Shown one piece after another: positions 1,961 through 41,681 of a DNA stretch of 41,681 nucleotides. Position 1 is the first letter of the stretch. Each line of letters starts with the position of its first letter. The DNA is from Comamonas denitrificans (GTDB lineage Bacteria > Pseudomonadota > Gammaproteobacteria > Burkholderiales > Burkholderiaceae_C). The notes under the pieces are model-generated. The model saw only the letters and a program-made list of their open reading frames with translations. It was not told where the DNA came from and did not search any database. The stretch is taken from the NCBI RefSeq assembly GCF_017368815.1, contig NZ_JAFNME010000024.1, positions 1-41,681 of the forward strand. The letters are read 5' to 3'. Both the position numbers and the translations under genes were made by a program.

Positions 1961-3229
1961 ATGTTTAACTACCACTACCCCGACGCTGCCGGCCACTTTG
2001 GCCCCTACGGCGGCAGCTTTGCCAGCGAAACCCTGACCTTTGCCCTCCAAGAGCTGCGCGATGCCTGGGCCCGTTACCAGAACGATCCCGAATTTCAGGC
2101 CGAATACCAGCGCGAGCTGGCGCATTTTGTCGGCCGCCCCTCCCCCGTGTACCACGCCCAACGCCTGAGCGAAGAAATCGGCGGCGCACAAATCTTCTTG
2201 AAGCGCGAAGACCTCAACCACACCGGCGCGCACAAGATCAACAACGTCATCGGCCAGGCCATGCTGGCACGGCGCATGGGCAAGCCGCGCATCATTGCCG
2301 AAACCGGCGCTGGCCAGCACGGCGTGGCCACGGCCACCATCTGCGCGCGCTACGGGCTGGAATGCATCGTGTACATGGGTGCTGAAGATGTGAAGCGCCA
2401 AAGCCCCAACGTCTTTCGCATGAAGCTGCTGGGCGCCACCGTGGTACCCGTCGAATCGGGCAGCAAAACCCTGAAAGACGCGCTCAACGAAGCCATGCGC
2501 GACTGGGTGGCGAATGTGGACAACACCTTCTACATCATCGGCACCGTGGCGGGCCCTGCCCCCTACCCAGCCATGGTGCGCGACTTTCAGCGCGTAATTG
2601 GCGAAGAGTGCCTGACGCAAATGCCCGAGCTGCTGCGCAGCCTGCAGCTGGCGGGCGAACAGCCCGATGCCGTGGTCGCCTGCGTGGGCGGCGGCAGCAA
2701 CGCCATGGGCATCTTCCACCCCTACATCCCCCTGGAAAAAACCCGCCTGATTGGCGTAGAAGCGGCGGGCGAGGGGCTGGATACCGACAAGCACGCCGCC
2801 TCGCTGCAAAAAGGCACGCGCGGGGTGCTGCACGGCAACCGCACGCTGATCCTGCAAGACCAAGACGGCCAGATCACCGAAACGCACAGCATCAGCGCCG
2901 GCCTGGATTACCCCGGTGTCGGCCCCGAGCACGCCTGGCTGCAAGAGCTGGGCCGCGCCCAGTACGTGGGCTGCACCGACAGCGACGCGCTGGCCGCCTT
3001 CCACCGCCTGTGCCGCACCGAAGGCATCATCCCCGCGCTGGAATCGAGCCACGCCGTGGCCTATGCCATCCAACTGGCCCAAACGATGCGCCCCGATCAA
3101 TCCATCCTGGTCAATCTCTCGGGCCGGGGTGACAAAGACATTGGCACCGTGGCCGACTTCTCGGGCGAAGATTTTTACGACCGCCCCTCCATGCGGGGAC
3201 TGAAGGTCAAAGGAAGCGACAAACTATGA
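1961..3229 (+). CDS. trpB: Tryptophan synthase beta chain
   Basis: The product makes L-tryptophan from indole (channelled from TrpA) and L-serine with PLP. The 422-residue protein starts [20 protein letters not shown]. The PLP lysine sits in HTGAHKINN (around residue 94). The catalytic Glu lies in [10 protein letters not shown] and the phosphate cradle in [10 protein letters not shown]. The monovalent-cation and C-terminal region reads [10 protein letters not shown]. Length and motifs are standard for TrpB1. The stop overlaps the trpA ATG (ATGA at 3226-3229), the classical trpBA coupling that supports equimolar subunits. Confidence 0.98.
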
Positions 3230-4041
3230 GCAACCGCCGCATCACTGCAACATTCGACAAACTGCGCAGCGAAGGCCGCCAGGCGCTGATCCCGTTTGTC
3301 ACCGCCGGCTACCCCTTTGCCGCCATCACCCCGGGGTTGATGCACGGCATGGTCGAGGCAGGCGTGGACATCATCGAGCTGGGCGTGCCCTTCTCCGACC
3401 CCATGGCCGATGGCCCCGTCATCCAAAAAGCGGGAGAACGCGCCATTGCCAACGGCGTGAATCTGGCCAAAGTGCTGGGCTACGTGCGCGAGTTCCGTCA
3501 GAAAAACCAGCACACCCCCGTGGTGCTGATGGGCTACGCCAACCCCGTCGAGCGCTACGACCTGCAGCATGGCGAGGGGGCCTTTGTGCGCGATGCCGCA
3601 GCTGCCGGCCTGGATGGCATGCTGGTGGTCGATTACCCGCCCGAAGAATGCCAAGACTTTGCCGCCGCCCTCAAAGCCCACGGCATGGACATGATCTTTC
3701 TGCTGGCACCCACCAGCAGCGACGCACGCATCCAGGAAATTGCCCAAATCGCCAGCGGTTACGTTTACTACGTCTCGCTCAAAGGCGTGACCGGCTCGGC
3801 CGCGCTGGATACCGACGATGTCGCCCGCATGCTGGCGCGCATCCAACAACACGTCCACATCCCTGTGGGCGTGGGCTTTGGCATCCGCGATGGCCAAACT
3901 GCCCACACCGTGGCCCAAATGGCCGATGCGGTCATCATTGGCAGCCGCATCATCCAGCTGCTGGAAGACCAGCCGCACGAAAAAGTCATCCCCCTGGCGA
4001 TCGACTTTCTGCGTGGCATCCGCAAAGCAATGGACGCATAA
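3226..4041 (+). CDS. trpA: Tryptophan synthase alpha chain
   Basis: The product cleaves indole-3-glycerol phosphate to indole and glyceraldehyde 3-phosphate, the first half reaction of tryptophan synthase. The 271-residue TIM barrel contains the catalytic Glu in [22 protein letters not shown] sequence (here [18 protein letters not shown]) and the second catalytic Asp around DYPPEE. The phosphate-binding loop VGFGIRDG comes near the C-terminal third. It overlaps trpB by 4 nt. A 68-nt gap containing a strong ribosome site leads to accD, the order usual in beta- and gammaproteobacteria. Confidence 0.98.
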
Positions 4042-4109
4042 TGCCGCCCTTGGCCAGCACCAGAACTGTTCTGGGCGCTGGCCACTCTCGCTAGATTGAA
4101 GGAGGAGCC

Positions 4110-4985
4110 ATGTCCTGGCTTGAAAAGCTGCTGCCCACCAAGGCCCAAGCAACCGAACCCAAGGAACGCCACCAGCAAATTCCTGAAGGCCTGTGGGTGA
4201 AATGTCCCTGCTGCGAAGCGGTGCTGTACAAAACCGATTTGCAAAAAAATCAGAACGTCTGCCCCACCTGCAGTCACCACCACCGCATCAACGCCCGCGA
4301 TCGCCTGAACCACTTCATGGACGGCGAAGGCCGCTACGAAATCGGCCAAGAAGTCATCCCCGTCGATGCCCTCAAATTCAAAGACAGCCGCAAATACCCC
4401 GAGCGCCTCAAAGAAGCGCTGGAAAACACCGGCGAAACCGATGCCCTGGTCGTCATGGGTGGCACCGTCAAAGGCATCGAGCTGGTCGCCGCGTGCTTTG
4501 AGTTCGACTTCATGGGCGGCTCCATGGGCTCCGTGGTGGGCGAGCGCTTTTGCCGGGGCGTGGAAACCGCCATCGAGCAAAAAGTCCCCTTCATCTGCTT
4601 TACCGCCACCGGCGGCGCACGCATGCAAGAAGGCCTGCTCTCGCTCATGCAAATGGCCAAAACCAACGCTGCACTCACGCGCCTGGCACAAAAAGGCCTG
4701 CCCTACATCAGCGTGCTTACCGACCCCACCATGGGCGGTGTCTCGGCCGGTTTTGCCTTTGTGGGCGACATCGTCATGGCCGAACCCAACGCCCTGATCG
4801 GCTTTGCCGGCCCGCGCGTGATTGAAACCACCGTGCGCGTCAAACTGCCCGAAGGCTTTCAGCGTGCTGAATTCCTGCAAGAAAAAGGCGCCGTGGACAT
4901 GATCGTCGATCGCCGCGAACTACGCGAGCGCATCGCCAGCAGCCTGGCCATGCTGCAGCGCCTGCCCGCTGACGCCATCATCTGA
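4110..4985 (+). CDS. accD: Acetyl-CoA carboxylase carboxyltransferase subunit beta
   Basis: The product is the beta subunit of the carboxyltransferase that transfers CO2 from carboxybiotin to acetyl-CoA, giving malonyl-CoA for fatty acid synthesis. It works with AccA. The 291-residue protein has the N-terminal four-Cys zinc finger ([13 protein letters not shown] ... [10 protein letters not shown], about residues 28-55) and then the crotonase-fold domain with [11 protein letters not shown] and [13 protein letters not shown] strong GGAGG ribosome site precedes the ATG by about 6 nt. It is last in the fimV-truA-trp-accD run and is followed by a terminator. Confidence 0.98.
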
Positions 4986-5991: not shown

Positions 5992-6104
5992 ATGCCTTGG
6001 ACAGGCTCTCGACACAACGTGTCGCTGCGGCTGCTTACATTGGCTTGCACGGCCCGGCGCTCAGCGCCAAGCCCACCCCCCAAGCCAACAACGGAAAGAA
6101 GCCC

Positions 6105-6644
6105 ATGTCCTCTTTTTGCTCTCAATGCGGCAAACCCTACCCTGAACACGACCCATCCTGCCTGGTACATCGGCTCGCGCAGCAAGCTTTGCCACCCCTG
6201 GCGAAAAAAACGCCCTTTTCCAATGCCGCCCCAAAGCCAGCGAATAACGAACCCCATGCGGCCCAACCATGCACACCCGTGAACAAAGCGGCCCCGCATG
6301 CTTTCGGCCCTCTGAATAAATTTATTTGGATATTGGCCTTTGCGCCGCTCATTGGCATGGTGCTTGAATACGCTATTGCCCATATTTTTTACAGCAGCAG
6401 TTACGCCGCCAATGCCGCTGTGGGTAATGGATATTTTTTCTGGGTCACGCTCTTATTGAATATTGGACTGTGTACGCTGGATGAAAAACATTTAAGAAAC
6501 CACAGCATTAACACCCAACCCATTGGGGCAGCTTGGCTGGTGCCGGTGTATATCTTTAAAAGAAGCAAACACCTGCAAGACGGCCCGGTGTATTTTTACC
6601 TCTGGATCGGCACTTTGGTAACTGCCGCTATTTTCAGCATTTAA
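6105..6644 (+). CDS. Zinc-ribbon membrane protein (first of three)
   Basis: This 179-residue protein is of unknown function. The N-terminus has a degenerate zinc ribbon, CSQCGKPYPEHDPSC, with C-x2-C and then a lone Cys followed by His. A Pro/Ala-rich linker runs to about residue 65. Three hydrophobic stretches follow: around KFIWILAFAPLIGMV, around FFWVTLLLNIGL, and at the C-terminus WIGTLVTAAIFSI. ATG 6105 has a purine-rich GGAAAG just upstream and places the ribbon at the N-terminus as in its neighbour. The frame is open back to 5958, but that part overlaps the psd terminator. It is 17 nt before the next zinc-ribbon gene, probably one operon. Confidence 0.75.
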   Translation: MSSFCSQCGKPYPEHDPSCLVHRLAQQALPPLAKKTPFSNAAPKPANNEPHAAQPCTPVNKAAPHAFGPLNKFIWILAFAPLIGMVLEYAIAHIFYSSSYAANAAVGNGYFFWVTLLLNIGLCTLDEKHLRNHSINTQPIGAAWLVPVYIFKRSKHLQDGPVYFYLWIGTLVTAAIFSI

Positions 6645-6661
6645 TCGAACGGAGATTCAAA

Positions 6662-7591
6662 ATGTCGCACCTCTTTTGCACCCACTGCGGCCAACAGATT
6701 GCCGCCACCGACCGGCATTGCCCCCACTGCGGCACCATGCAAACTGCCGTCATCCCCCCTCTTGCTGTGCCTGGGAAAAAAGCCGTACCAGACGGCATTC
6801 GTGGCTGGTCTTGGGGGGCGTTTCTGCTCAGTTGGGTCTGGGCCATTGGCAACAAAACCTGGATTGGCCTGCTCGCCCTCATTCCCTACGTTGGTCTGAT
6901 CATGGCCATCATCCTGGGCATCAAAGGCCGGGAATGGGCCTGGCAAAACAAAGAATGGGACAGCATCGAACACTTCCAGCGCGTGCAAAAACAATGGAAC
7001 CGCTGGGCCTTCATCATCGTAGGTGCCCTGCTGGTCATCGGCCTGCTCGCCGGCATCGGCATCGCAATGTACGAAGAACATGCCCCATCCACCCACACCT
7101 CCCAAGCGCAAGACATCCCACCCCCAGCACCCACTGCAGCCAGTGCCCCAGCAAGCACCCCATTTGCGCAGGCATTCGATGAACCCCTAACGCACTCGGC
7201 CAGTGCGCAGAAATATGAGCCTGTTTTTCTCTCTGAGAATGATGACGGGCATCTGTTCAAAATATCCAGCTACCCCAAAAAAATCATCTACAAGAATACC
7301 AATCTTCTGGATTATTTATTTGAAGATACTGACATGATCGGTTATCTGGCATTTGAAAAAACTTACCAATTTGGCGAAAACTATATTTTCATCATATCTA
7401 CCGGAGAGAATGGAAACTCCTGCCCCGCCACCACTTACGCCTTTCAGGTAGATACAGCCGCCAACCGCATCTCTGACAAGCACGAAATCGACGGCTGCTC
7501 AGAAAACGTAGAAACTTTTTCCGAAGGCAACACGCTGATGGTCAAAAAAGAAGGCAATGCCAGCATTTTCTACAACGGCGAAGTTCAGTAA
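6662..7591 (+). CDS. Zinc-ribbon membrane protein with C-terminal soluble domain
   Basis: This 309-residue protein starts MSHLFCTHCGQQI. It has a complete C-x2-C...C-x2-C ribbon (CTHC and CPHC, residues 6-25). A membrane domain follows with WSWGAFLLSWVWAIGNKTWI, a further hydrophobic stretch and a third helix, FIIVGALLVIGLLAG. The order 'WGAFLL-W-IGN-W ... KGREWAWQN' is a widespread bacterial inner-membrane module of unknown role. After residue 140 comes a Pro/Ala/Ser linker and a C-terminal domain of about 140 residues with two spaced Cys (NSCPAT and DGCSEN), likely disulfide-forming if periplasmic. The C-terminal part is more AT-rich than the N-terminal part. Function is not assignable. Confidence 0.8.
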   Translation: MSHLFCTHCGQQIAATDRHCPHCGTMQTAVIPPLAVPGKKAVPDGIRGWSWGAFLLSWVWAIGNKTWIGLLALIPYVGLIMAIILGIKGREWAWQNKEWDSIEHFQRVQKQWNRWAFIIVGALLVIGLLAGIGIAMYEEHAPSTHTSQAQDIPPPAPTAASAPASTPFAQAFDEPLTHSASAQKYEPVFLSENDDGHLFKISSYPKKIIYKNTNLLDYLFEDTDMIGYLAFEKTYQFGENYIFIISTGENGNSCPATTYAFQVDTAANRISDKHEIDGCSENVETFSEGNTLMVKKEGNASIFYNGEVQ

Positions 7592-7594
7592 TCT

Positions 7595-7626
7595 GATCAT
7601 CCGATCATCCGATCATCCGGTCATCC
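7595..7626. repeat. Four tandem 8-bp units (GATCATCC)
   Basis: GATCATCC occurs at 7595-7602, 7603-7610 and 7611-7618, followed by GGTCATCC at 7619-7626. The array lies in the 58-nt gap between two zinc-ribbon genes, just upstream of the third gene's start region. Slippage there could change spacing. No function is shown. Confidence 0.9.
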
Positions 7627-7649
7627 CCCAAAATTCAGAAAGCCCCACC

Positions 7650-7988
7650 ATGAGTTTTTGCCGAGGCTGCGGCACCGCGCTGCACGAAACTGCCCCCACC
7701 TGCCCGCACTGCGGTGCGCCCCAAAACCTACCGTCGGCCGAGCCCCCCGGCACGCTCTGGCTGCCCGTACCGGCGCTGATCGTGGGCATCCTGGCGCTGC
7801 TGGCGGCCATCGGTTTGGCCGACTCCGCACTGATCGACCCAGATGAATACGTGGGCACCCTGCTGTTCGCCGGCATCGCCATCATCCTGGGGGCCATTGG
7901 CACCTACCAGCAGAAAAAAGGCCGGGGCCTGTCTATTGCGGGATTGGTACTGGGCGGCCTGGCCTTGCTCATCAGCCTAGGTGTTTAA
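7650..7988 (+). CDS. Small zinc-ribbon membrane protein (third of three)
   Basis: This 112-residue protein begins MSFCRGCGTALHETAPTC with a full zinc ribbon (C-x2-C and CPHC). Three hydrophobic segments follow: LPVPALIVGILALLAAIGL, LLFAGIAIILGAIG and the C-terminal LSIAGLVLGGLALLISLGV. ATG 7650 is chosen because the ribbon follows at once. The frame is open back to 7557 but overlaps the previous gene. Proteins of this type occur widely as uncharacterised zinc-ribbon membrane proteins. The following dispersed repeat probably terminates the three-gene unit. Confidence 0.78.
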   Translation: MSFCRGCGTALHETAPTCPHCGAPQNLPSAEPPGTLWLPVPALIVGILALLAAIGLADSALIDPDEYVGTLLFAGIAIILGAIGTYQQKKGRGLSIAGLVLGGLALLISLGV

Positions 7989-8079: not shown

Positions 8080-8264
8080 GCGCTAACTCCTGGCATAGGC
8101 ATGCAGCCGCTGGTATCGCAAAACACCGCAATAAGTGCGGCAGAATGCATCTAACAAATATTTACATCAAGGCGGAAAAATTACTCAGCATGCGGCACAC
8201 CCTGTCGCACCCCATTTTTACAGTACGCCACACTGCGGCCCCTTGTTATGGACGGACCCTGACC

Positions 8265-9188
8265 ATGCCCAACCACGCCCTTGTCACTGCAACGACTGCC
8301 GATACCAAAAGCGAAAAACTCGCACAACGTCTGTCGCGCATCATTGCCCGTCTGCACCAGGGCGAGCACATCGACAAACACCAGCTGGCGGCTGAATTTG
8401 GCACCACCATCCGCACCATCGAGCGCGACCTGCACCAGCGCCTGCACGGCATCGCCGAGCGCAACGCCCAAGGTCAATGGCAACTGACCCTGACCGCCCG
8501 CAGCACCATCCCGGCGCGACACCTGCACGGCTACGCCCGCATGGCCGGCACCGAGCGCCTATTCCCCGATGCCAGCCTGCCCTACCTGCTGGGCCAGCTC
8601 AACACCCCCGAACCGCACCGCGCCACCCACGTGCAGCCCGTACCGCACGAAGACCTGGGCGGAGGCACCCGCACCTTCGCGGCGCTGCAAGCGGCCATCG
8701 AGCAGCAGCACACCTGCCACTTCACCTACAAAACCAAACCGCGCCACGCCCACCCCTACCGCCTGATCCACAAAAACGGTGTCTGGTACCTGGCCGCCGA
8801 AGAAGCAGGCCGCCTGAAAAACTTCAGCGTCGCACTCATCGAACAACTGCAGGTGGACAGCAGCGCCCCCTTCACCCCCAAACGCACGCACCTGGACTAC
8901 ATCGCCAACAAAGACGACGTGTGGTTTACCGAACAAACCACCGAAGTGCTACTGCGCATCGCCCCCGACATCGCCCACTACTTCGCCCGCCGCCAGCTGC
9001 TGCCCCAACAGCAACACCGCCAAGACAGCGATGGCTCTTTGCTGGTCACCACCCAGATCAACCACATCAACCAGCTACTACCCGTGGTACGCTATTGGCT
9101 ACCGCATGTGCGGATTATTCAGCCAACAGATTGGAGAAAGCGATTGATTCAAGATCTTAAGGAGGGAATTAATTTATTAAAAATATAA
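8265..9188 (+). CDS. WYL-domain transcriptional regulator
   Basis: This 307-residue protein has an N-terminal helix-turn-helix (about residues 17-60, HQLAAEFGTTIRTIERDLHQ) and a central WYL domain (about 135-200). The latter contains HPYRLIHKNGVWYLAAEE, with W-Y-L at 174-176. A C-terminal WCX-like part has TTEVLLRIAPDIAHYFARR. WYL regulators sense ligands or nucleic acids and often control defence or accessory loci. ATG 8265 lies shortly before the HTH. An in-phase ATG at 8145 would add 40 residues unlike the family and partly AT-rich. Base composition changes abruptly in the last ~90 nt. The gene ends 72 nt before the first micro-peptide gene in the same direction, so it is a candidate regulator of that locus (inference). 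Confidence 0.85.
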   Translation: MPNHALVTATTADTKSEKLAQRLSRIIARLHQGEHIDKHQLAAEFGTTIRTIERDLHQRLHGIAERNAQGQWQLTLTARSTIPARHLHGYARMAGTERLFPDASLPYLLGQLNTPEPHRATHVQPVPHEDLGGGTRTFAALQAAIEQQHTCHFTYKTKPRHAHPYRLIHKNGVWYLAAEEAGRLKNFSVALIEQLQVDSSAPFTPKRTHLDYIANKDDVWFTEQTTEVLLRIAPDIAHYFARRQLLPQQQHRQDSDGSLLVTTQINHINQLLPVVRYWLPHVRIIQPTDWRKRLIQDLKEGINLLKI

Positions 9189-9209
9189 AGACTTTAAAAT
9201 TAATTAAAT

Positions 9210-9227
9210 TATCTTTTATAAAAGATA
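9210..9227. promoter_or_regulatory. Perfect palindrome overlapping a -10 box upstream of the peptide genes
   Basis: TATCTTTTATAAAAGATA at 9210-9227 is a perfect 18-bp palindrome. It runs into TATAAT at 9226-9231, a good -10 match 30 nt before the first peptide ATG. No convincing -35 box is seen. An operator overlapping the -10 would suit repression. Perfect palindromes are easier to get by chance in AT-rich DNA, so this is a candidate only. Confidence 0.45.
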
Positions 9228-9260
9228 TAATTTTCAAACAAATTAAACAGGGGTTAATTA

Positions 9261-9338
9261 ATGAAAAAAATCTACATCAAAAATCCAGAAAAATTTTTAC
9301 CTACTGGTGACACAAATTGCAATTTATTTTGCTGGTAA
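9261..9338 (+). CDS. Putative RiPP precursor micro-peptide 1 (25 aa)
   Basis: A 25-codon gene with a clear ribosome site, AGGGG at 9249-9253, 7 nt before the ATG. The product begins MKKIYIKNPEKF and ends DTNCNLFCW, so it has two Cys spaced C-x3-C with the second next to the C-terminal Trp. The start MKKI and the D-x-x-C-N ... C ending are shared with the two following micro-genes (9353, 9430). Their order ahead of a radical SAM/SPASM gene indicates a precursor peptide with a short leader and a Cys-containing core. PqqA and MftA are similarly tiny radical SAM substrates (family knowledge), but no sequence similarity to either is visible. Confidence 0.75.
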   Translation: MKKIYIKNPEKFLPTGDTNCNLFCW

Positions 9339-9352
9339 ATAAGTTTACAAAT

Positions 9353-9433
9353 ATGAAAAGAATAAGTTTCCAAAATAGTCATCAATTCTCTTTGATTGAT
9401 TTTGTTTGCAACGTTAACATACCATGCTCATGA
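9353..9433 (+). CDS. Putative RiPP precursor micro-peptide 2 (26 aa)
   Basis: A 26-codon gene starting 14 nt after the first peptide's stop. The product begins MKRISFQNSHQF and ends IDFVCNVNIPCS, with Cys spaced C-x5-C and one residue after the last Cys. No good ribosome site is visible (upstream is AAGTTTACAAAT), so translation may depend on coupling to gene 1. It overlaps gene 3 by 4 nt (ATGA at 9430-9433). It shares IDF-x-CN with peptide 3 and MK-x-I with both. Confidence 0.75.
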   Translation: MKRISFQNSHQFSLIDFVCNVNIPCS

Positions 9434-9516
9434 AAAAAATTACCTTTCTAAAACAATCAACTCCATCTTCCATTGATTTCTTCTGCAATTCAAATTTCAC
9501 TAGCTGCAGCGGTTAA
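9430..9516 (+). CDS. Putative RiPP precursor micro-peptide 3 (28 aa)
   Basis: A 28-codon gene whose ATG overlaps the stop of peptide 2 (ATGA). The product begins MKKITFLKQSTP and ends IDFFCNSNFTSCSG, with Cys spaced C-x6-C. The ordered set of three, with variable cores but fixed ends, suggests duplication and divergence of a modified-peptide precursor. The ATGA overlap, the preserved frame in such AT-rich DNA and the aligned motif argue that these are real genes and not chance frames. No experimental support is possible from sequence. Confidence 0.75.
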   Translation: MKKITFLKQSTPSSIDFFCNSNFTSCSG

Positions 9517-9534
9517 ACAAAATTAAATAAATTT

Positions 9535-9563
9535 ATTAAAAGAGAGTCCTCCTCTCTTTTAAT
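9535..9563 (+). terminator. Perfect 12-bp hairpin between peptide genes and maturase gene
   Basis: ATTAAAAGAGAG (9535-9546) pairs perfectly with CTCTCTTTTAAT (9552-9563) across a 5-nt loop, TCCTC. Only 9 nt separate it from the ATG at 9573, and no Shine-Dalgarno sequence is present there. It may be a partial terminator or attenuator lowering maturase expression relative to the precursors, or an RNA structure gating maturase translation. There is no T-run after the stem, only the TTTT inside it, so full termination is doubtful. Confidence 0.55.
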
Positions 9564-9572
9564 ACAAATAAT

Positions 9573-10919
9573 ATGACATCAATATATAAAATACCATACT
9601 GGGTAACAAAAACAAAAACAAAAAATCAATTGTTTTTGTTTAATTGGAAAAACAATAAATCAGTAATTATTTATGATGAAAATCATCCAGCAAACACTCT
9701 AAGCGAGCAAAAAATAATTCAGAGAGAAAATTTTTACTCGGAAGAGTATTTATCAGATATAGACTGGCTAATTGAGAGCTCATTCTTACAACTAGAATCT
9801 GAGAAAAAAGAAGAAAATTTCACGCCAAAGAAAAAAATTAGCCAACAAGAACTACATCTAATCATTCTTCCCGCAGGAGAAGCTTGCAACTTAAATTGTG
9901 TTTATTGCTACGAAAATCATAACTACAAGAAACGAATGAATGACTCTGACTCAGACAGGTTAATTTCATTTATAAAAAAACAAGGCTCAGAACTAGTAAA
10001 TATTGAGTATTTTGGCGGTGAACCGATGCTAAACATGAAATTCATTGAGGATTTCTCCAAAAAGCTCACTAAAAATAAAATAAAATATCATGCCGGCATT
10101 ACTACAAACGGCACATTACTATCAAAACAAAATTTAGAAAAACTCCACAAATCTGGCGTAAAATCTTTCCAAATAACTATTGATGGAGCCCGGAATTTAC
10201 ACAATAAACTAAGAATTTCAAATAGCAAAAATCTTAACTCTTATGAGTCTGTATGCAATGCATTAAAAAATATTCAACAATCCTGCCATTCAGATATAAA
10301 TTGCGTTGTTAGAATAAATTCAAACAAAGAAACGATACAAAAAGAAAATCTCTCAACTTTCATCAAAGATATAAAAAATATCATACCACCAGATGACCAT
10401 AGATTTCTTATTTTTCCAAAGCCTATAGGCGATTATCTCAGCGCAAACTTGAAGGATAATTCAAAAGCACAAAGTACATATTGTGATAAATCTAGCGCGA
10501 ACGAGGTCACAGAAATCTTAGAGAAAGCCTTTTTCAACCAAGGTTACTTATTGGCAGATCCTATTATGCTGACAAAAAATAAAGGATATGCCTGCTATGC
10601 AGGAAATGAAAATAGCTTTATCATAAACCCTGATTTTTATATTTACAAATGCACTGTAGCTCTCGACGACCCAATTAATAATGTCGGAAAAATTCTAGAA
10701 GATGGAAGTTTATCAATAAATGAAAATTTTCATTTATGGACAAAAGACTATTCAAATGAATCTTGCGGAGATTGCTTTGCAAATAAAACATGCACCGGAA
10801 ATTCTTGTCCGTTAATCAATATAAAACTTAATGAAAAAAAATGCCCTCCATTTAAAAACCAAATAGACAGTACTACATTTAAATTAGTCAAATTTTACGA
10901 AAGAGTATCAAATGCCTAA
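9573..10919 (+). CDS. Radical SAM/SPASM peptide maturase
   Basis: This 448-residue protein has the radical SAM cluster motif C-x3-C-x2-C at Cys105/109/112 (ACNLNCVYCYE), preceded by strand HLIILPAGE. GGEP (148-151) is the SAM-binding loop of the family. The C-terminal region fits a SPASM domain with two auxiliary [4Fe-4S] clusters: Cys341, Cys360, then C-x2-C-x5-C-x4-C at 398/401/407/412 and Cys424. SPASM enzymes that modify ribosomal peptides (sactipeptide, ranthipeptide, cyclophane, PqqE and MftC types) share this layout. The N-terminal ~95 residues are AT-rich coded and may be a substrate-binding region, but I cannot identify a PqqD-like domain. It is strongly AT-rich relative to its neighbours and overlaps the next gene by 8 nt. 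Confidence 0.9.
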   Translation: MTSIYKIPYWVTKTKTKNQLFLFNWKNNKSVIIYDENHPANTLSEQKIIQRENFYSEEYLSDIDWLIESSFLQLESEKKEENFTPKKKISQQELHLIILPAGEACNLNCVYCYENHNYKKRMNDSDSDRLISFIKKQGSELVNIEYFGGEPMLNMKFIEDFSKKLTKNKIKYHAGITTNGTLLSKQNLEKLHKSGVKSFQITIDGARNLHNKLRISNSKNLNSYESVCNALKNIQQSCHSDINCVVRINSNKETIQKENLSTFIKDIKNIIPPDDHRFLIFPKPIGDYLSANLKDNSKAQSTYCDKSSANEVTEILEKAFFNQGYLLADPIMLTKNKGYACYAGNENSFIINPDFYIYKCTVALDDPINNVGKILEDGSLSINENFHLWTKDYSNESCGDCFANKTCTGNSCPLINIKLNEKKCPPFKNQIDSTTFKLVKFYERVSNA

Positions 10920-11628
10920 ATTTTCCCAATCAATCAACCTGTCAAACCAAATAACCATAGTATTAAATGGCGATTTTTCACTAAAAATAAGTCCTTCCCC
11001 AGACAACTCCGATCATATAAATTTAATCAATTACAAAAAAGACAACTTCTCTAGAAAAATAACCTCAGACCTAATAGAAATCAACGTATCAGAAGTAGAG
11101 TTGGAAGGTCAAAAACACTTTGATAAGTTTAATTCTTCCATAGAAAAAAAACAGGGCGTATTATCCAGCATCAGTTCTTTTATATCAGATGCTATTGAAT
11201 ACAAAAATTTTGTAGAGGAGAAAAAAAATAATATTGTATTAGAAATTTTATTAAATAAAAAAAATGAAAAAGAAATATTAATAATATCAAAAAATCTTTC
11301 TGTAACATTCGGAGAAATTCATACAGAATCAATAAAAATTAAATCTGGAAATCTTAACTTCCAACATGGGAAACTAATCTCAAGATCTATTGAAATAAAT
11401 TCCGGGAATATTAAAGGTATGACTATATTCAATCCAGGAAACAAAAATATAAAAATTACCTCCTCTAATGGAAGTTTGACAGTAAATAAAAATCCCGAAT
11501 TCAATGGACTGATTGAATATTATGGAAATAATCTAAAAACAATTAATGCCCCAAAAAATGGAGATATAAATTCTGGGCATTTTTATACAAAACTAAATAA
11601 TGGAAAAATAATTTTCAATGAAAATTAA
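10912..11628 (+). CDS. Beta-solenoid-like protein linked to the radical SAM gene
   Basis: This 238-residue protein starts at an ATG inside the end of the maturase gene (8-nt overlap), so it is translationally coupled. The N-terminal 65 residues alternate hydrophobic and polar residues (ITIVLNGDFSLKISPS). From about residue 120, short repeating strands appear: IKIKSGNLNFQHGK, IEINSGNIKG, IKITSSNGSLTV and GDINSGHFYTK. This resembles DUF4097/DUF2807 'putative adhesin' right-handed beta-helix proteins. No signal peptide or transmembrane segment is seen, so it is probably cytoplasmic. Partner, scaffold or immunity roles are all possible and none is shown. The protein is AT-rich coded, with Lys and Asn prominent. 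Confidence 0.75.
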   Translation: MPKFSQSINLSNQITIVLNGDFSLKISPSPDNSDHINLINYKKDNFSRKITSDLIEINVSEVELEGQKHFDKFNSSIEKKQGVLSSISSFISDAIEYKNFVEEKKNNIVLEILLNKKNEKEILIISKNLSVTFGEIHTESIKIKSGNLNFQHGKLISRSIEINSGNIKGMTIFNPGNKNIKITSSNGSLTVNKNPEFNGLIEYYGNNLKTINAPKNGDINSGHFYTKLNNGKIIFNEN

Positions 11629-11943
11629 TTCAAGGCATAGTACACACCAATACTATCCCCTGAAATAAAAATAAATATGCACTGCTTAATCAATCGCATT
11701 ACCAACTGCTTTGTAGTAAATTGATTTATTAGGTATTAGGCTTCGAGTGCACTAATTAATCATACGAAACAATCGTGCAATCACCTCTTGAAAGAAGTAA
11801 AAAACTCCACATCGACTCCGTTCGCTTACTTATAAAAATAAAAACGTTACAGAGATATAGGTAGTGCAATTTTTTTATTCCAATGGCTCCACCGAAATCA
11901 CTAAATACTTTTTTGACAATGTAATTTCATAATGGACTAAACC
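11629..11943. other. AT-rich gap closing the island
   Basis: These 315 nt separate the solenoid gene from the zinc-ribbon gene. They stay AT-rich to about 11885, where composition returns to that of the flanks. I see no clear terminator, tRNA or att-type repeat. A 15-codon frame (11677-11724) is too short and lacks a ribosome site. Confidence 0.6.
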
Positions 11944-12159
11944 ATGCCCATCCCCCCACCCCCACGCCAATACCACTGCCCTGCCTGCCACTGGAGTAAG
12001 ACCGTCGCCCCGCGAAGCGATGTACTGATGCCGGGCCACGACACCTTTCATAGCTGCCCCAAGTGTGGGCACGCACCGCTGGATTCCCAAGCGGCGGATG
12101 GCTGGGCAGCGGGTGTGGGGCAGGCGCTGGACGTATTGACCCAATGGCTCAAACGCTGA
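11944..12159 (+). CDS. Small zinc-ribbon protein paired with HEPN gene
   Basis: This 71-residue protein has two C-x2-C knuckles (CPAC at 12-15 and CPKC at 38-41) and a short helical C-terminus, AADGWAAGVGQALDVLTQWL. It has no transmembrane segment. The stop is only 7 nt before the ATG of the HEPN-domain gene, so the two are probably one unit. Function is unknown. It could be a nucleic-acid-binding or antitoxin-like partner (inference from position only). Confidence 0.65.
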   Translation: MPIPPPPRQYHCPACHWSKTVAPRSDVLMPGHDTFHSCPKCGHAPLDSQAADGWAAGVGQALDVLTQWLKR

Positions 12160-12166
12160 ACTGACC

Positions 12167-12937
12167 ATGAACACCAAAGCCACCCCAATTGCCCCCACCC
12201 CTACGCTGGCCACCCTCAGCGCCCGCCACCAAGCCCAAATTGCCCAGCAGCGCACGCCTTTCACCCTGCGCATACACCGTGCCTTGAGCTGGCTTAAGCG
12301 GGCTGAGGCGGCAGGGGAAGATGACGATGTGGCCTTTATCTGCCTGTGGATTGGCTTCAATGCGGCTTATGCACAGGATTTGGGTGAAGGTGGCGGTACG
12401 GCGGCCTCTGAGCGGCAGACGTTTCGCAACTTCATGGCCGATTTGTGTGCGCTGGATGGCGACAAGGCACTGGCCAAGCTGGTGTGGCAAGTGTTCCCCG
12501 GCCCAATCCGCGTGCTGCTGAACAATCAATATGTGTTTCAGCCGTTTTGGGATGCGCACAGCAACCCGCGCAGCGATGGCAGCATTCCCGACCATTGGCG
12601 CGAGGCGTTTGATGAGGCGCGCCAGCGCGTGCATCGGGCGTTGGCGCAGGAGGATACCGAGCGGGTGCTGTACGAGGTGTTTGTGCGCCTGTACACGCTG
12701 CGCAACCAGCTGATGCACGGCGGCGCGACGTGGAACAGCACCGTGAACCGCGCCCAGGTACGCGATGGCCGGGCGCTGCTGGCGCGGGTGTTGCCCGCCA
12801 TGCTGGGCGTGATGATGAACCACCCCGCGCGCTTTGAGGGCCGGCCGTTTTATCCGGTGGTGCCAGACGCACCCTCTCCCACCAAACGCAGCCCCCTGCA
12901 ATCACCCCCTTTCAAAAGCACTGCCGCAGACCGCTGA
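12167..12937 (+). CDS. HEPN-domain protein
   Basis: This 256-residue, mostly helical protein contains LYTLRNQLMHGGATWNS, with Arg179-x4-His184. This is the R-x4-6-H signature of HEPN ribonucleases and nucleotide-binding proteins. An acidic helix with FICLWIGFNAAYAQ (57-70) supports an Apea-like HEPN fold. HEPN proteins act in toxin-antitoxin and phage-defence systems and in RNA processing (family knowledge). The C-terminal ~25 residues are a Pro/Ser tail. An 89-bp piece of its 3' region is duplicated at 13645-13733. It is cotranscribed with the preceding zinc-ribbon gene. Whether it is a toxin is not shown. Confidence 0.75.
   Translation: MNTKATPIAPTPTLATLSARHQAQIAQQRTPFTLRIHRALSWLKRAEAAGEDDDVAFICLWIGFNAAYAQDLGEGGGTAASERQTFRNFMADLCALDGDKALAKLVWQVFPGPIRVLLNNQYVFQPFWDAHSNPRSDGSIPDHWREAFDEARQRVHRALAQEDTERVLYEVFVRLYTLRNQLMHGGATWNSTVNRAQVRDGRALLARVLPAMLGVMMNHPARFEGRPFYPVVPDAPSPTKRSPLQSPPFKSTAADR
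12781..12869 (+). repeat. Direct repeat copy 1 (inside HEPN gene)
   Basis: These 89 bp match 13645-13733 with three mismatches (T/C in the early part, then C/G and C/A near GAGGG-CGG). They encode HEPN residues about 206-234 (ARVLPAMLGVMMNHPARFEG and following). This is the likely parent copy because it lies in an intact frame. Confidence 0.9.
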
Positions 12938-13493: not shown

Positions 13494-13747
13494 GCAAGAT
13501 TGCCGTCTATGCGGACTGGGAAGGGCTGCACGGGCCACAGCGGCTTGGTTTTCTGCACAGAAGGACTCGCGCGAGCGAACTGTTTGACACAGCAGCGCGT
13601 GCTCTTTTGCCTGGCGTGACCATGCTGCGCTGTGGTTCAGCCTGGGCGCGGGTGTTGCCCGCCATGCCGGGCGTGATGATGAACCACCCCGCGCGCTTTG
13701 AGGGGCGGACGTTTTATCCGGTGGTGCCAGACGGGGGGCGACGCTGA
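13490..13747 (+). pseudogene. hipA remnant fused to duplicated HEPN 3' fragment
   Basis: The 85-codon frame begins [18 protein letters not shown] and continues LGFLH, the usual start of HipA Ser/Thr kinases. Homology fades after about 31 residues (near 13585). After a ~60-nt linker of unknown origin the frame runs into the 89-bp copy of the HEPN gene end (13645-13733), also in the HEPN reading frame. The remaining ~400 residues of HipA, including the kinase core, are absent. A deletion or recombination has therefore removed the toxin. A short chimeric protein could still be translated by coupling to hipB, but no function is expected. Confidence 0.75.
13645..13733 (+). repeat. Direct repeat copy 2 (inside hipA remnant)
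   Basis: This 89-bp copy of 12781-12869 shows 86 identical positions. It sits in the broken hipA region and is followed by unrelated bases that lead to the brnT fragment. Its high identity suggests the duplication is fairly recent or still homogenised. Confidence 0.9.
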
Positions 13748-37958: not shown

Positions 37959-38675
37959 TTACGGTGTTTTTTGCAGCAAATGGGCGTGGACGGCCCCGGC
38001 CTTCAGGTGGCGGTAGCGCACCAGCCCCAGGGGGGCCAGTTGCGCGTCGTCCCACGCCTGCGGGGCTTCCAGATAAATAAAGCCATCGTGCGCCAGCACC
38101 TGCGCCGCTGCGGTCAAGGCGGGCACAAACAGGTTGCCAAGATCAAAGGGCGGGTCAATAAAAATTGCATGCCAATGGCCCGGGGCGCTAGCGTTGAGCG
38201 CGGCAATGCCATCGCCCCGCTGCACTTGAATCACCGCCTGCGCCCCCAGCTGGGTGCTGATGCGCTCCAGCTGCAAGGTCAGGCCGCCATCTTGCTCCAC
38301 CAGCCGCACTTGCTGGGCCCCGCGCGAAGCAGCTTCAAAGCCCAAGGCCCCCGTGCCCGCAAAAGCATCCAGGCAGCGCCAGCCAGTCAAATCCTGCCCC
38401 AGCCAGTTGAACAAGGTTTCGCGCACGCGGTCGGGCGTGGGGCGCAGGCCGGGGCGCTGGGCCACACTGAGCTTGGTGCGCCGCCATTGGCCGCCGATGA
38501 TGCGCACCTCGCCTGCACCATTTTTGCTAGCGCTTTGCGCTGATGGATTGGCGGCTTTATGGCTTTTTAACTCTTTAGCGTTAGCAATATCAGCCAGTTG
38601 GCGCTCTTGTATTTTTTTGAAGCGGGCCTCCATGGCCAAGGCTTCTTCGAGGGTGCGGACGCGGTTGCGGCTCAT
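37959..38675 (-). CDS. rsmD: 16S rRNA (guanine(966)-N2)-methyltransferase RsmD
   Basis: The product methylates G966 of 16S rRNA. The 238-residue protein has the core blocks VRIIGGQWRRTKL, RPTPDRVRETLFNWL, CLDAFAGTGALGFEAASRGA (SAM site) and the catalytic FIDPPFDLG. About 56 residues precede the core, more than usual. Residues about 19-52 (FKKIQERQLADIANAKELKS and following) are Lys/Asn/Ser-rich and coded by AT-richer DNA resembling the dispersed palindromic element, so an insertion in frame is likely. It overlaps the upstream M16 gene by 4 nt. Confidence 0.93.
   Translation of the reverse strand: MSRNRVRTLEEALAMEARFKKIQERQLADIANAKELKSHKAANPSAQSASKNGAGEVRIIGGQWRRTKLSVAQRPGLRPTPDRVRETLFNWLGQDLTGWRCLDAFAGTGALGFEAASRGAQQVRLVEQDGGLTLQLERISTQLGAQAVIQVQRGDGIAALNASAPGHWHAIFIDPPFDLGNLFVPALTAAAQVLAHDGFIYLEAPQAWDDAQLAPLGLVRYRHLKAGAVHAHLLQKTP
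38517..38620. repeat. Dispersed-element-like segment inside rsmD
   Basis: The plus strand reads TTTTTGCTAGCGCTTTGCGC at the left, then ATGGATT and TTTATGGCTTTTTAA, and ends in GGCGCTCTTG plus a T-run. These are word matches to copies A-D (GCGCTT, TTTATGG, GCGCTCTT). The segment keeps the rsmD frame open. Similarity is by eye and weaker than among the intergenic copies. Confidence 0.45.
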
Positions 38676-40057
38676 GGTTGTTTCTCTTGTTCAGTGGCAG
38701 AGGGGGCGGATGGCGTCGATGGGGCCTGTGCACCCAGCACCACGGTGACCAGCCGATCGGGCTGCCAGTGGCGCTGCAAGGCGCTGCGCACATCGGCCAC
38801 GGTGAGGGCTTGCAGGCGATGCGTCCAATGGTCTAAATAATCCAGCGGCAAATCATTCCAGGCAATGTTGGCCACGTTGCCCAGCAGCTTGCGGTTGCTG
38901 TCCAGGCGCAGGGCAAAGCCGCCGATCAGGTTGTCTTTGGCGGCTTGCAGTTCGGCCTCGGTCGGGCCGTGGGCGATGAAATCGGCCAGCACCTGGCGCG
39001 TCAGGGCCAGCGCCTGCTCGGCCTGGTCGGGGCGGGTTTTCAGGCCAATGGTGAACGCCCCGGCGTGCAGGCCCGGGGCCATGCTGCTGGAGATGCCATA
39101 GGTCAGGCCGCGCTTTTCGCGCACCTCTTCCATCAAGCGCGAGGTAAAACCGCCCCCGCCCAGAATGTGGTCACCCAGCAGCAGGGCCAGAAAATCGGGG
39201 TCGCTGCGCCGAATGCCCGGCTGGCCAACGATGATTTGCGCCTGCGCGGCGGCAAAGGGGATGCGAATGTCCTGCGCTTGGGTCAGCGGCGGCACCTCGG
39301 CCACGGCGGGCAAGGCCGGGCAGGTGCCCGACTGGGGCAGGCGCTGCAGCAGCTGCGTGACCAGGGCATCGGTCTGGGCCTTGTCCAGCGCCCCCACCAC
39401 GCTCACCTTGGCGCGGCAAGGCTGCACGGTTTGGCGGTAGAAGGCTTGCATGGCCGGGATGTCAATCTGGGCCAGCGTCTGCGCCGTGGTAAAGCGGCCA
39501 TAAGGGTGGCCGCCATACACCGCCTGGGCAAAGGCTTTGCCGGCCACGGTGCCGGGGCGGGTATCGGCCTCGGCCAGGTCCGCCGTCCAGCGCTGGCGCT
39601 CGCGCTGCCACACCTTGCCATCCCACAGCGGCTGGGCGATTTGGCGGCTGGCCAAGGCCGTCACCTGGGCCAGCAAAGCGGGCTGGGTCAGGCTGCGCAG
39701 GCTAAAGCTAAAGCTGTCGTTGCCCGCACTGGCCTCCAGGCTGGCCCCCAAATCGGCCCAGGCTTGGCCCAGGGCGTTTTCATCCAACGGTTTTTGCCCC
39801 TGCGCCGCTTGAATGCCTTTGCCCATCATCAGCGCGGTGGCATTGGCCAGCCCCTCTTGCCCCACAGGATCGCGGCGGCTGCCGCCATCAAACTGCAGTT
39901 GCACATCCACCATGGGAATGCTGGGGCTGTGCACCAGCCAGACCTGGGCACCGCTGGGCTGCTGCCAATGCTCAATCGGCAAAATAGCCCAGGCAGAATT
40001 TACATAAAAAGTGGCAATAACGCTTACCAAACCTGCGCGAATAGCTATCTTTTTCAT
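38672..40057 (-). CDS. M16-family peptidase-like protein, inactive type
   Basis: This 461-residue secreted or periplasmic protein has a signal peptide (ending NSAWA). Both M16 halves are present (FDGGSRRDPVGQEGLANATA; EVREKRGLTYGISSSMAPGL), but the zinc motif HxxEH is missing: the place is taken by GQEGLANATALMM. Such proteins pair with an active M16 partner to form a heterodimeric protease, as encoded directly upstream (1-nt overlap TAATG). The C-terminal Pro/Ser tail is short. It overlaps rsmD by 4 nt. Confidence 0.88.
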   Translation of the reverse strand: MKKIAIRAGLVSVIATFYVNSAWAILPIEHWQQPSGAQVWLVHSPSIPMVDVQLQFDGGSRRDPVGQEGLANATALMMGKGIQAAQGQKPLDENALGQAWADLGASLEASAGNDSFSFSLRSLTQPALLAQVTALASRQIAQPLWDGKVWQRERQRWTADLAEADTRPGTVAGKAFAQAVYGGHPYGRFTTAQTLAQIDIPAMQAFYRQTVQPCRAKVSVVGALDKAQTDALVTQLLQRLPQSGTCPALPAVAEVPPLTQAQDIRIPFAAAQAQIIVGQPGIRRSDPDFLALLLGDHILGGGGFTSRLMEEVREKRGLTYGISSSMAPGLHAGAFTIGLKTRPDQAEQALALTRQVLADFIAHGPTEAELQAAKDNLIGGFALRLDSNRKLLGNVANIAWNDLPLDYLDHWTHRLQALTVADVRSALQRHWQPDRLVTVVLGAQAPSTPSAPSATEQEKQP

Positions 40058-41481: not shown

Positions 41482-41509
41482 AGAATCGGCTGATTCTAAG
41501 AAGTGCGCA

Positions 41510-41681
41510 ATGTTCAGTTTCCTTAAAAAAAAATCTCCCCCACCCGCCCCTGTGGCTGACGATCCATCGGCCACGGCTGCGGCCCCTGCCGCCCCGCCTG
41601 CAGCCGCCCCCAGCGGAGCCATAGGCAAGCTGCGCTCCATGTTTGGCCTGGGCGACAAAACCCCAGTGGTGCCCCCTGAGC
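41510..41681 (+). CDS. ftsY: FtsY, signal recognition particle receptor (3' end outside window)
   Basis: Only the first 57 codons are present. The start MFSFLKKKSPPPAPVADDPS and the Ala/Pro-rich linker, then IGKLRSMFGLGDK, fit the variable N-terminal region of FtsY in Comamonadaceae. The gene context (divergent from the M16 pair and rsmD) is the usual one for ftsY. The GTPase NG domain lies beyond the window, so the call rests on context and the N-terminus. Confidence 0.75.
   Translation, partial: MFSFLKKKSPPPAPVADDPSATAAAPAAPPAAAPSGAIGKLRSMFGLGDKTPVVPPE

What the first reader, a model, noticed from the sequence alone, without database searches (positions are those of the whole stretch)
9188..11628. 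Unrecognised RiPP-type locus: three micro-peptides, a radical SAM/SPASM enzyme and a beta-solenoid protein
The sequence directly shows three tiny in-tandem reading frames with related ends, then a radical SAM gene (C-x3-C-x2-C at 105/109/112 plus SPASM cysteines), then an overlapping solenoid-like gene, all in one AT-rich block. SPASM radical SAM enzymes typically modify ribosomal peptides (PqqE, MftC, sactipeptide and ranthipeptide maturases). I do not recognise this precursor type in known families: the peptides are only 25-28 residues and carry two Cys each in a D-x-x-C-N-x(2-5)-C core. No exporter or protease is encoded nearby, so the product may stay in the cell or use host functions.
Basis: partly seen in the sequence, partly recalled or inferred. 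Interest (0 to 1): 0.95.

Follow-up and report, generated by a model that had tools for sequence, protein, structure and literature searches.

The report
Micro-peptide RiPP cassette in defence slot
Three tiny cysteine peptides and the radical enzyme that probably knots them sit where related bacteria keep different anti-virus gene sets behind the same control gene, which suggests, but does not prove, a peptide-based defence.

Summary
The observation largely holds: three tandem 25-28-aa peptides ending in D-x-x-C-N...C, a full SPASM radical SAM enzyme and an overlapping gene lie in an AT-rich block. None of 4000 shuffles gave even two such frames. The 'beta-solenoid' label could not be confirmed.

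The RiPP reading is well supported. The enzyme models best onto known peptide maturases. Related enzymes (about 25-35% identical) stand beside Cys-rich precursors; in some Bacilli these too are micro-peptides, some in tandem. In 27 such precursors Asn/Asp stands three residues before 44 of 86 Cys (21.8 expected, 0 of 3000 permutations); in the window before 5 of 6. NxxcA has this geometry (Cys23 linked to Asn20), so I predict i-3 beta-thioether rings.

The unforeseen part is the address. The upstream gene is a WYL regulator. Behind its 9 close relatives lie other, defence-type genes (dynamins/Leo, patatin, PDC-M40, PDC-M09; 7 of 9 by PADLOC model, one of them weak). An operator-like repeat precedes the regulator in 6 of 8 relatives and, less exactly, in the window. 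A WYL-controlled, intracellular anti-phage RiPP is my best but unproven explanation.

The parts
6010..6024 (+). second operator-like inverted repeat CGACACAACGTGTCG, ending 81 bp before the ATG at 6105 of a zinc-ribbon membrane gene
   Evidence: 14 of 15 letters of the motif found upstream of related WYL genes; sequence
8145..9188 (+). WYL + WCX regulator; true start possibly the in-frame ATG at 8265
   Evidence: Pfam WYL 2.4e-12, WCX 2.2e-11; PADLOC WYL 1.3e-26
8193..8207 (+). operator-like inverted repeat CGGCACACCCTGTCG at the place where relatives have it
   Evidence: 13 of 15 letters; 6 of 8 close relatives have 14-15 of 15 at about the same place
9210..9227 (+). perfect 18-bp palindrome TATCTTTTATAAAAGATA, overlapping a TATAAT at 9226-9231, before peptide 1; possible second operator
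   Evidence: 27 of 5000 shuffles reach it; arms
9261..9338 (+). precursor peptide 1, MKKIYIKNPEKFLPTGDTNCNLFCW, with an AGGGG before the ATG
9353..9433 (+). precursor peptide 2, MKRISFQNSHQFSLIDFVCNVNIPCS
9430..9516 (+). precursor peptide 3, MKKITFLKQSTPSSIDFFCNSNFTSCSG; start overlaps the stop of peptide 2 (ATGA); alternative ATG at 9424
9534..9564 (+). 13-bp hairpin between peptides and enzyme; possible attenuator that lets peptide mRNA exceed enzyme mRNA (role inferred; the scan called it terminator-like on the - strand only)
   Evidence: -13.9 kcal/mol, z -7.45, 0 of 200 shuffles
9573..10919 (+). radical SAM/SPASM peptide maturase, 448 aa, with a predicted N-terminal RRE-like domain
   Evidence: Pfam Radical_SAM 3.8e-16; invariant SPASM Cys; model pLDDT 73 and Foldseek matches
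10912..11628 (+). 238-aa protein of unknown fold, overlapping the maturase gene by 8 nt
   Evidence: ORF; no family match

Best explanation
A cargo cassette in a WYL-regulated defence slot. Shown: three tandem micro-peptides, a SPASM radical SAM gene and an overlapping third gene stand directly behind a WYL regulator gene, at a place where close relatives of that regulator have other, defence-type genes. Well supported by inference: the peptides are RiPP precursors that the enzyme modifies. Inferred: the enzyme joins Cys to the Asp/Asn three residues before it (D-x-x-C and N-x-x-C; N-x-x-x-C for the second Cys of peptide 3) by a beta-thioether, giving two small rings near the C-terminus. Inferred: the WYL protein holds the operon down until it senses DNA damage or infection; the hairpin lets peptide mRNA exceed enzyme mRNA. 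Inferred, weakest: with no exporter recognised nearby, the ringed peptides act inside the producing cell, alone or bound to the 238-aa protein, to stop phage growth or kill the infected cell. Rough odds: RiPP 0.85, i-3 thioether 0.5, defence role 0.5.
For: Peptides beyond chance. Maturase with all SPASM Cys; Foldseek best matches are peptide or protein maturases: 5why/5wgg (CteB by recall), anSME, TigE, SuiB, ChlB, SkfB. Micro-precursors, some in tandem, beside related enzymes. Asn/Asp at -3 of Cys: window 5 of 6 Cys (13 of 5000 permutations), 16 relatives' precursors 20 of 38 (1 of 5000), and 11 precursors first left out 24 of 48 (0 of 3000). NxxcA is linked Cys23 to Asn20 by a C-beta thioether (PMC8326336, passages). 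Slot: behind the 9 close WYL genes (57-80% identical) the cargo is defence-type: 7 of 9 with a PADLOC model at E 1e-5 or better (among them PDC-M40B 4.6e-231 and LeoB 2.1e-220; in L195 only a partial patatin effector match, 9.9e-6, beside a Pfam dynamin), L197 by Pfam dynamin + patatin, L189 by likeness to L188. The right-hand neighbour gene or sequence beyond it is kept in 4 of the 9. Operator-like repeat in 6 of 8 testable relatives plus, with 13 of 15 letters, the window.
Against: No phage assay, expression or mass data. The system was found in one genome only (capped searches), so nothing is known of its conservation as a unit. Related enzymes elsewhere have other company (an MFS transporter in L010; what looks by eye like an ABC transporter behind L220), so the enzyme family is not a defence family. 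PADLOC has no model for this cassette; its only match to the enzyme is the radical SAM core of pVip (6.9e-17). Three distant WYL paralogues (34-37% identical) are not followed by recognisable defence genes, judged by eye, so the slot logic holds for the close WYL family only. The window's operator has 13 of 15 letters, two relatives have only 10, and two matches with up to 3 mismatches in the window are not rare (20 of 100 shuffles). PDC families are candidates (recalled), not proven systems, and dynamins are not all defence genes. Other offsets are mildly enriched too: -1 in the first precursor set (55 of 5000), -4 in the second (48 of 3000). PapB does not link a transposed Asp...Cys pair (PMC9413430, passages), so i-3 chemistry cannot be assumed from fold.
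Confidence: 0.47

Rival explanations
1. A secreted RiPP (bacteriocin or signal) that happens to have landed behind the WYL gene; host exporters and proteases finish it.
For: Related enzymes look like general RiPP maturases; transporters stand beside some of them (L220 by eye). Several distinct tandem precursors suit a variable bacteriocin or signal.
Against: No exporter, protease or immunity gene recognised in the block; slot cargo behind 9 close WYL genes is of intracellular defence type.
Confidence: 0.3
2. The peptides are consumed to make a small redox or peptide cofactor, in the manner of PqqA/PqqE or MftA/MftC (comparison recalled).
For: Micro-peptides of 22-30 aa are usual for cofactor precursors (recalled); the third gene overlaps the enzyme gene.
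Against: Three different copies in tandem and Cys cores with an i-3 acceptor point to ring formation; I recognise no dehydrogenase gene in the block.
Confidence: 0.08
3. The short frames are not translated, or are leader/attenuator peptides of the operon, and the enzyme modifies the 238-aa protein.
For: SPASM enzymes also modify proteins (anSME is a top structural match); the hairpin behind the frames looks like an attenuator.
Against: 0 of 4000 shuffles reproduce two such frames; micro-precursors beside related enzymes; the 238-aa protein has no Cys.
Confidence: 0.07

Closest known systems
NxxcA/NxxcB (streptococcal RaS-RiPP, a ranthipeptide)
   Same: Asn (here also Asp) three residues before Cys; radical SAM enzyme with SPASM domain; Cys-S to C-beta of an upstream residue is the predicted bond
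   Different: Asp as well as Asn, two predicted rings per peptide, tandem 25-28-aa precursors, a WYL instead of an Rgg/SHP regulator; NxxcB itself was not at hand for comparison
PapA/PapB (freyrasin) and SCIFF ranthipeptides
   Same: SPASM maturase; Cys plus Asp acceptor
   Different: PapB links Cys to a DOWNSTREAM Asp (CX3D) in a longer peptide with six such motifs (PMC9413430, passages); window enzyme scores 98 of the 340 bits required
TIGR04463, Clo7bot, CefB, FlmE/OhkG maturase families (NCBIfam)
   Same: Best sequence matches, 109-114 bits over most of the enzyme
   Different: All far below cut-offs of 500-600 bits
BrxR / CapW WYL regulators of defence systems
   Same: WYL regulator in front of defence-type cargo, inverted-repeat operator (PMC9122601: abstract and one section; PMC9122588: abstract)
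   Different: Among solved structures only other WYL proteins match, at E 1e-5; ligand and DNA binding not tested
Prokaryotic viperins
   Same: Radical SAM core; antiviral setting suspected here
   Different: Window enzyme has a full SPASM domain; 58 of the 180 bits required by the viperin model

Membership tests
Radical SAM/SPASM RiPP maturases | C-x3-C-x2-C cluster motif | tested here: met
   C105, C109, C112, invariant in 16 rows
Radical SAM/SPASM RiPP maturases | auxiliary SPASM cysteines | tested here: met
   C341, C360, C398, C401, C407, C412, C424 invariant in 16 rows
Radical SAM/SPASM RiPP maturases | N-terminal RRE (beta3-alpha3) for leader binding | tested here: inconclusive
   predicted order EEE-HHH in residues 11-83, but pLDDT about 40-70; definition from a passage of PMC12710340
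Ranthipeptides (non-alpha thioether) | Cys thioether to C-beta or C-gamma | not testable with these tools
   needs mass spectrometry/NMR; only the i-3 Asn/Asp statistic supports it
NxxC subfamily | N-x-x-C core | tested here: met
   peptides 1 (NLFC) and 2 (NIPC); peptide 3 has N-x3-C; all three have D-x-x-C (sequences)
NxxC subfamily | sequence kinship of enzyme to NxxcB | not tested
TIGR04463 / CefB / FlmE-OhkG / Clo7bot / PapB maturases | score above NCBIfam cut-off | tested here: not met
   98-114 bits against 340-600
Viperin | score above cut-off; no SPASM (the latter recalled) | tested here: not met
   58.4 of 180 bits; SPASM Cys present
Toastrack / DUF4097 | Pfam PF13349 match of the 238-aa protein | tested here: not met
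   no Pfam match up to E 10
Toastrack / DUF4097 | profile kinship to a DUF4097 protein encoded next to an rSAM gene | tested here: inconclusive
   hhalign probability below 1%, yet score reached by only 1 of 200 shuffles, over 19 columns
BrxR/CapW-type defence regulators | WYL regulator before defence genes with an inverted-repeat operator | tested here: met
   architecture and context only; the N-terminal HTH is below Pfam cut-off
BrxR/CapW-type defence regulators | repression and release on infection or damage | not testable with these tools
   needs reporter assay
Known anti-phage systems (PADLOC 2023) | model match to the cassette's own proteins | tested here: not met
   only the pVip radical SAM core match to the enzyme, none to the 238-aa protein at E 0.01

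The most novel reading that the evidence does not exclude
A defence system whose effector is a ribosomal micro-peptide made active by a radical SAM enzyme: infection or DNA damage relieves the WYL regulator, three tandem 25-28-aa peptides are each tied into i-3 beta-thioether rings (D-x-x-C / N-x-x-C), and the ringed peptides, perhaps with the 238-aa partner, stop the phage from inside the cell.
Probability: 0.35. Interest if true: 0.92.

Novelty: new variant of a known kind. Interest (0 to 1): 0.74.

Why it matters
Radical SAM antivirals known so far (viperins; recalled) make nucleotides, and RiPPs are known mostly as exported antibiotics, signals or cofactors (recalled). A radical-SAM peptide cassette that trades places with dynamin, Leo and PDC genes behind one WYL regulator would link the two fields and give a ready test: clone about 2.4 kb and challenge with phage. 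Independently of defence, the [N/D]-x-x-C signature is a testable rule for where this large, mostly unassigned group of maturases puts its crosslinks. In the searches made (result listings and abstract starts, plus the passages named elsewhere) I saw no paper describing a radical-SAM-modified peptide as an anti-phage system; co-location of lanthipeptide clusters with defence systems is a subject in print (PMC12715929, listing and abstract start).

Tried and rejected
Close homologues: besides the own genome, none in 61 relatives searched and none by peptide-pattern scans of genome contigs and viral contigs with the window protein. Order-level search: 6 of 300 genomes, own included; of the 5 others I read two (G678, G470), which have longer-leader precursors; in the loci of the other three my script found no rSAM frame. 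Class searches: 2 of 369 genomes in the window's class, own included; 17 of 299 in the class of L016, centre included; 1 of 289 in the class of L012, the centre itself.

Viperin: rejected (SPASM present, score below cut-off). Toastrack for the third gene: suggested by Bradyrhizobium plasmids, where a related rSAM gene is followed 1 bp later (annotated start) by a DUF4097 gene (4 plasmid records with identical protein, so one independent case), but not shown by sequence. DUF4097: 0 of 41 relatives, own included, at E 1e-8. A phmmer scan of frames of 80 aa or more in all loci held at that point found no other relative of either protein. The 238-aa protein has no relative in plasmids or viral contigs by the searches made. 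Rfam: nothing at gathering score in 8900-12200. A tree of 51 enzymes (quick method; the careful search was not finished) leaves the window on a long branch with no supported partner; no donor can be named.

Statistics: the 16 precursors were picked by eye for standing beside an rSAM gene with Cys near the C-terminus; 11 others that I had left out were then tested and agreed; both sets hold related sequences, and further candidates (e.g. in L094) were in neither. The reverse-strand control covered only the upstream side. The distance of the operator to the WYL codons rests on an alignment anchor that is a few codons off in some loci (compare). The family search for WYL used E 1e-70, the genus search 1e-30, so distant WYL genes were listed for the genus alone. 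The three distant ones were judged by eye, not scanned with PADLOC; L189 was judged by likeness to L188; the patatin of L197 was scanned with Pfam only.
Full report
What is there. The three frames, the radical SAM gene and the overlapping gene are at the stated coordinates. Peptides: MKKIYIKNPEKFLPTGDTNCNLFCW, MKRISFQNSHQFSLIDFVCNVNIPCS, MKKITFLKQSTPSSIDFFCNSNFTSCSG. The block is about 30% GC in surroundings of about 53-68%. The CN-x(2-5)-C ending occurs in 3 of 121 ATG frames of 20-40 aa in the window, all three here; in 4000 dinucleotide shuffles of 9189-9572, 7 had one such frame and none two. Pairwise, peptides 2 and 3 are clearly related, 1 and 2 probably, 1 and 3 only weakly. Peptide 1 has an AGGGG before its ATG; peptide 3 starts inside the stop of peptide 2. 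A 13-bp hairpin (-13.9 kcal/mol, z -7.45) separates peptides from the enzyme gene.

The enzyme. Pfam gives Radical_SAM (3.8e-16). NCBIfam lists 71 families, of which 25 were shown, at 48-114 bits; many are RiPP maturases and none of those shown reaches its cut-off. The SPASM cysteines are invariant in the window and 15 relatives. A model from that alignment (pLDDT 73, pTM 0.72) matches 5why/5wgg (CteB, name recalled), anSME, TigE, SuiB and ChlB best, with SkfB at rank 14. Its first 90 residues are predicted as three strands and three helices, the order by which PMC12710340 (passage) defines RREs; confidence there is low. In a quick tree of 51 enzymes the window sits on a long branch without a supported partner.

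The relatives. They are about 25-35% identical. In a branch with a shortened SPASM domain (plasmids and genomes of Streptomyces, Sinorhizobium, Bradyrhizobium and others) the gene stands beside longer precursors, about 60-125 aa, several with a leader that reads, by eye, like I-x-L-D-x-x-G-x-V-x-I-x-D-P, and Cys-rich cores. I scanned 33 full-SPASM loci for short precursors: 15 kept, from several phyla, and 18 from the Bacilli-class search, where 17 of 299 genomes had the enzyme at E 1e-30. Ten, all from Bacilli, had a convincing short precursor (for example three copies of MKWIVKAAQERKATGNNNNCNC or near it, one with a further G, in L219, two near-copies of MKLVKKAMKRREAVANTNCNC in L224, 27 aa in L217 and L220); 5 had only chance-like frames and 18 none; a reverse-strand control of the upstream side gave 0 of 33. 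So micro-precursors, at times in tandem, are a recurrent format of this enzyme family.

Where the bond may go. Asn or Asp stands three residues before Cys at 5 of 6 Cys in the window (1.5 expected, 13 of 5000 permutations) and at 20 of 38 in 16 relatives' precursors (11.1 expected, 1 of 5000). Eleven precursors first left out gave 24 of 48 (10.6 expected, 0 of 3000), and all 27 together 44 of 86 (21.8 expected, 0 of 3000). Position -1 was enriched in the first set (55 of 5000) but not in the second, and -4 mildly in the second (48 of 3000) but not in the first. In NxxcA, Cys23 is tied to Asn20 by a C-beta thioether (PMC8326336, passages; PMC13361665, passages, speaks of an upstream Asn). I therefore predict i-3 beta-thioether rings, D-x-x-C then N-x-x-C (N-x-x-x-C in peptide 3). 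PapB works in the other direction and did not link a transposed Asp...Cys pair (PMC9413430, passages). The bond itself is not shown.

The address. The gene directly upstream (8145-9188) is a WYL + WCX regulator. Searching with its protein gave 8 places outside the window in 41 genus genomes at E 1e-30 and 4 more in 299 family genomes at E 1e-70: 9 close (57-80% identical) and 3 distant (34-37%). Behind the 9 close ones lie: PDC-M40B/C plus SUKH (L187), PDC-M09A/B-like (L188; L189 by likeness), two dynamins (L190), dynamin + patatin (L195, L197), three Leo-type dynamins (L196), PDC-M09A/PDC-M40B-like (L198), LeoB (L199). By PADLOC model at E 1e-5 or better that is 7 of 9, the L195 match being a weak partial patatin match. 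The 3 distant ones have no recognisable defence cargo by eye. In L187 the flanks match the window at 8307-9124 and 12033-12867 and the stretch between differs; L188, L195 and L196 also keep the right-hand neighbour or sequence beyond it. So the cassette fills a slot whose cargo is swapped. Cargo of lower GC is common there (L187, L188, L189, L195, L196, L197) but not the rule (L190, L198).

Control. An inverted repeat, CGACACAACCTGTCG, lies roughly 90-125 bp before the conserved K-x-E-K-L-A codons of the WYL gene in 6 of 8 relatives with 14-15 of 15 letters, and at 8193 in the window with 13 of 15; L195 and L196 have only 10, and L199 could not be tested because its contig starts inside the gene. 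A second window copy, 14 of 15, lies at 6010 before zinc-ribbon membrane genes. Two matches with up to 3 mismatches in the window are not rare (20 of 100 shuffles), so the weight rests on position and on the relatives. A perfect 18-bp palindrome with a TATAAT lies between the WYL gene and peptide 1 (27 of 5000 shuffles). BrxR, a WYL regulator, is a repressor, and 48% of its homologues are co-located with known defence systems (PMC9122601, abstract and one section); CapW represses CBASS (PMC9122588, abstract).

The third gene. No family match; the model is useless. A Bradyrhizobium elkanii relative has rSAM followed by a DUF4097 Toastrack gene, the same order, but kinship of the window protein to it is not shown.

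Verdict. A RiPP-type locus, very likely; an i-3 thioether peptide, plausible; a defence system, an even bet that rests on the slot. It is a new variant of a known kind of RiPP system in an unexpected place.

Noticed in passing
window 6010-6024 and 6105-7988: A near-perfect copy of the WYL-operator-like repeat stands before three zinc-ribbon/membrane genes upstream of the WYL gene; the C-terminal domain of the 6662-7591 product is 45% identical (131 columns) to a lipoprotein-like protein encoded right after the WYL gene in L195. These genes may belong to the same regulon.
   Followed up: partly
window 12167-12937: Right-hand neighbour of the slot, weakly HEPN_Swt1-like (E 0.058; PADLOC CARF_HEPN 0.0027), with look-alikes beside other cargo in L187, L195 and L196.
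   Followed up: no
window about 12820-12900 and 13640-13745: The end of the 12167-12937 gene seems to be repeated about 0.8 kb downstream (frames with ...NHPARFEGRPFYPVVPD and ...NHPARFEGRTFYPVVPD), perhaps the mark of an insertion or duplication.
   Followed up: no
L009 (Bradyrhizobium elkanii pS05J) 2689-4843: rSAM gene followed after 1 bp (annotated start) by a DUF4097 Toastrack gene, with a ...NNGGCQCN precursor upstream: a rSAM-Toastrack pair on plasmids typed as conjugative.
   Followed up: partly
L219, L224, L206, L208, L220 (unnamed Bacilli genomes): Micro-peptides of 21-29 aa with NCNC-like ends beside SPASM rSAM genes, in tandem in L219 and L224.
   Followed up: partly
L188 3971-6570 and L189 4276-7546: PDC-M09-like gene pairs behind the WYL gene (L188 scanned, L189 by likeness); candidate defence genes worth testing.
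   Followed up: no
window 38672-41658: Two adjacent insulinase-like (M16 type, by eye and recall) protease genes about 27 kb away; too far to count as the leader protease, but the only candidate I recognised in the window.
   Followed up: no
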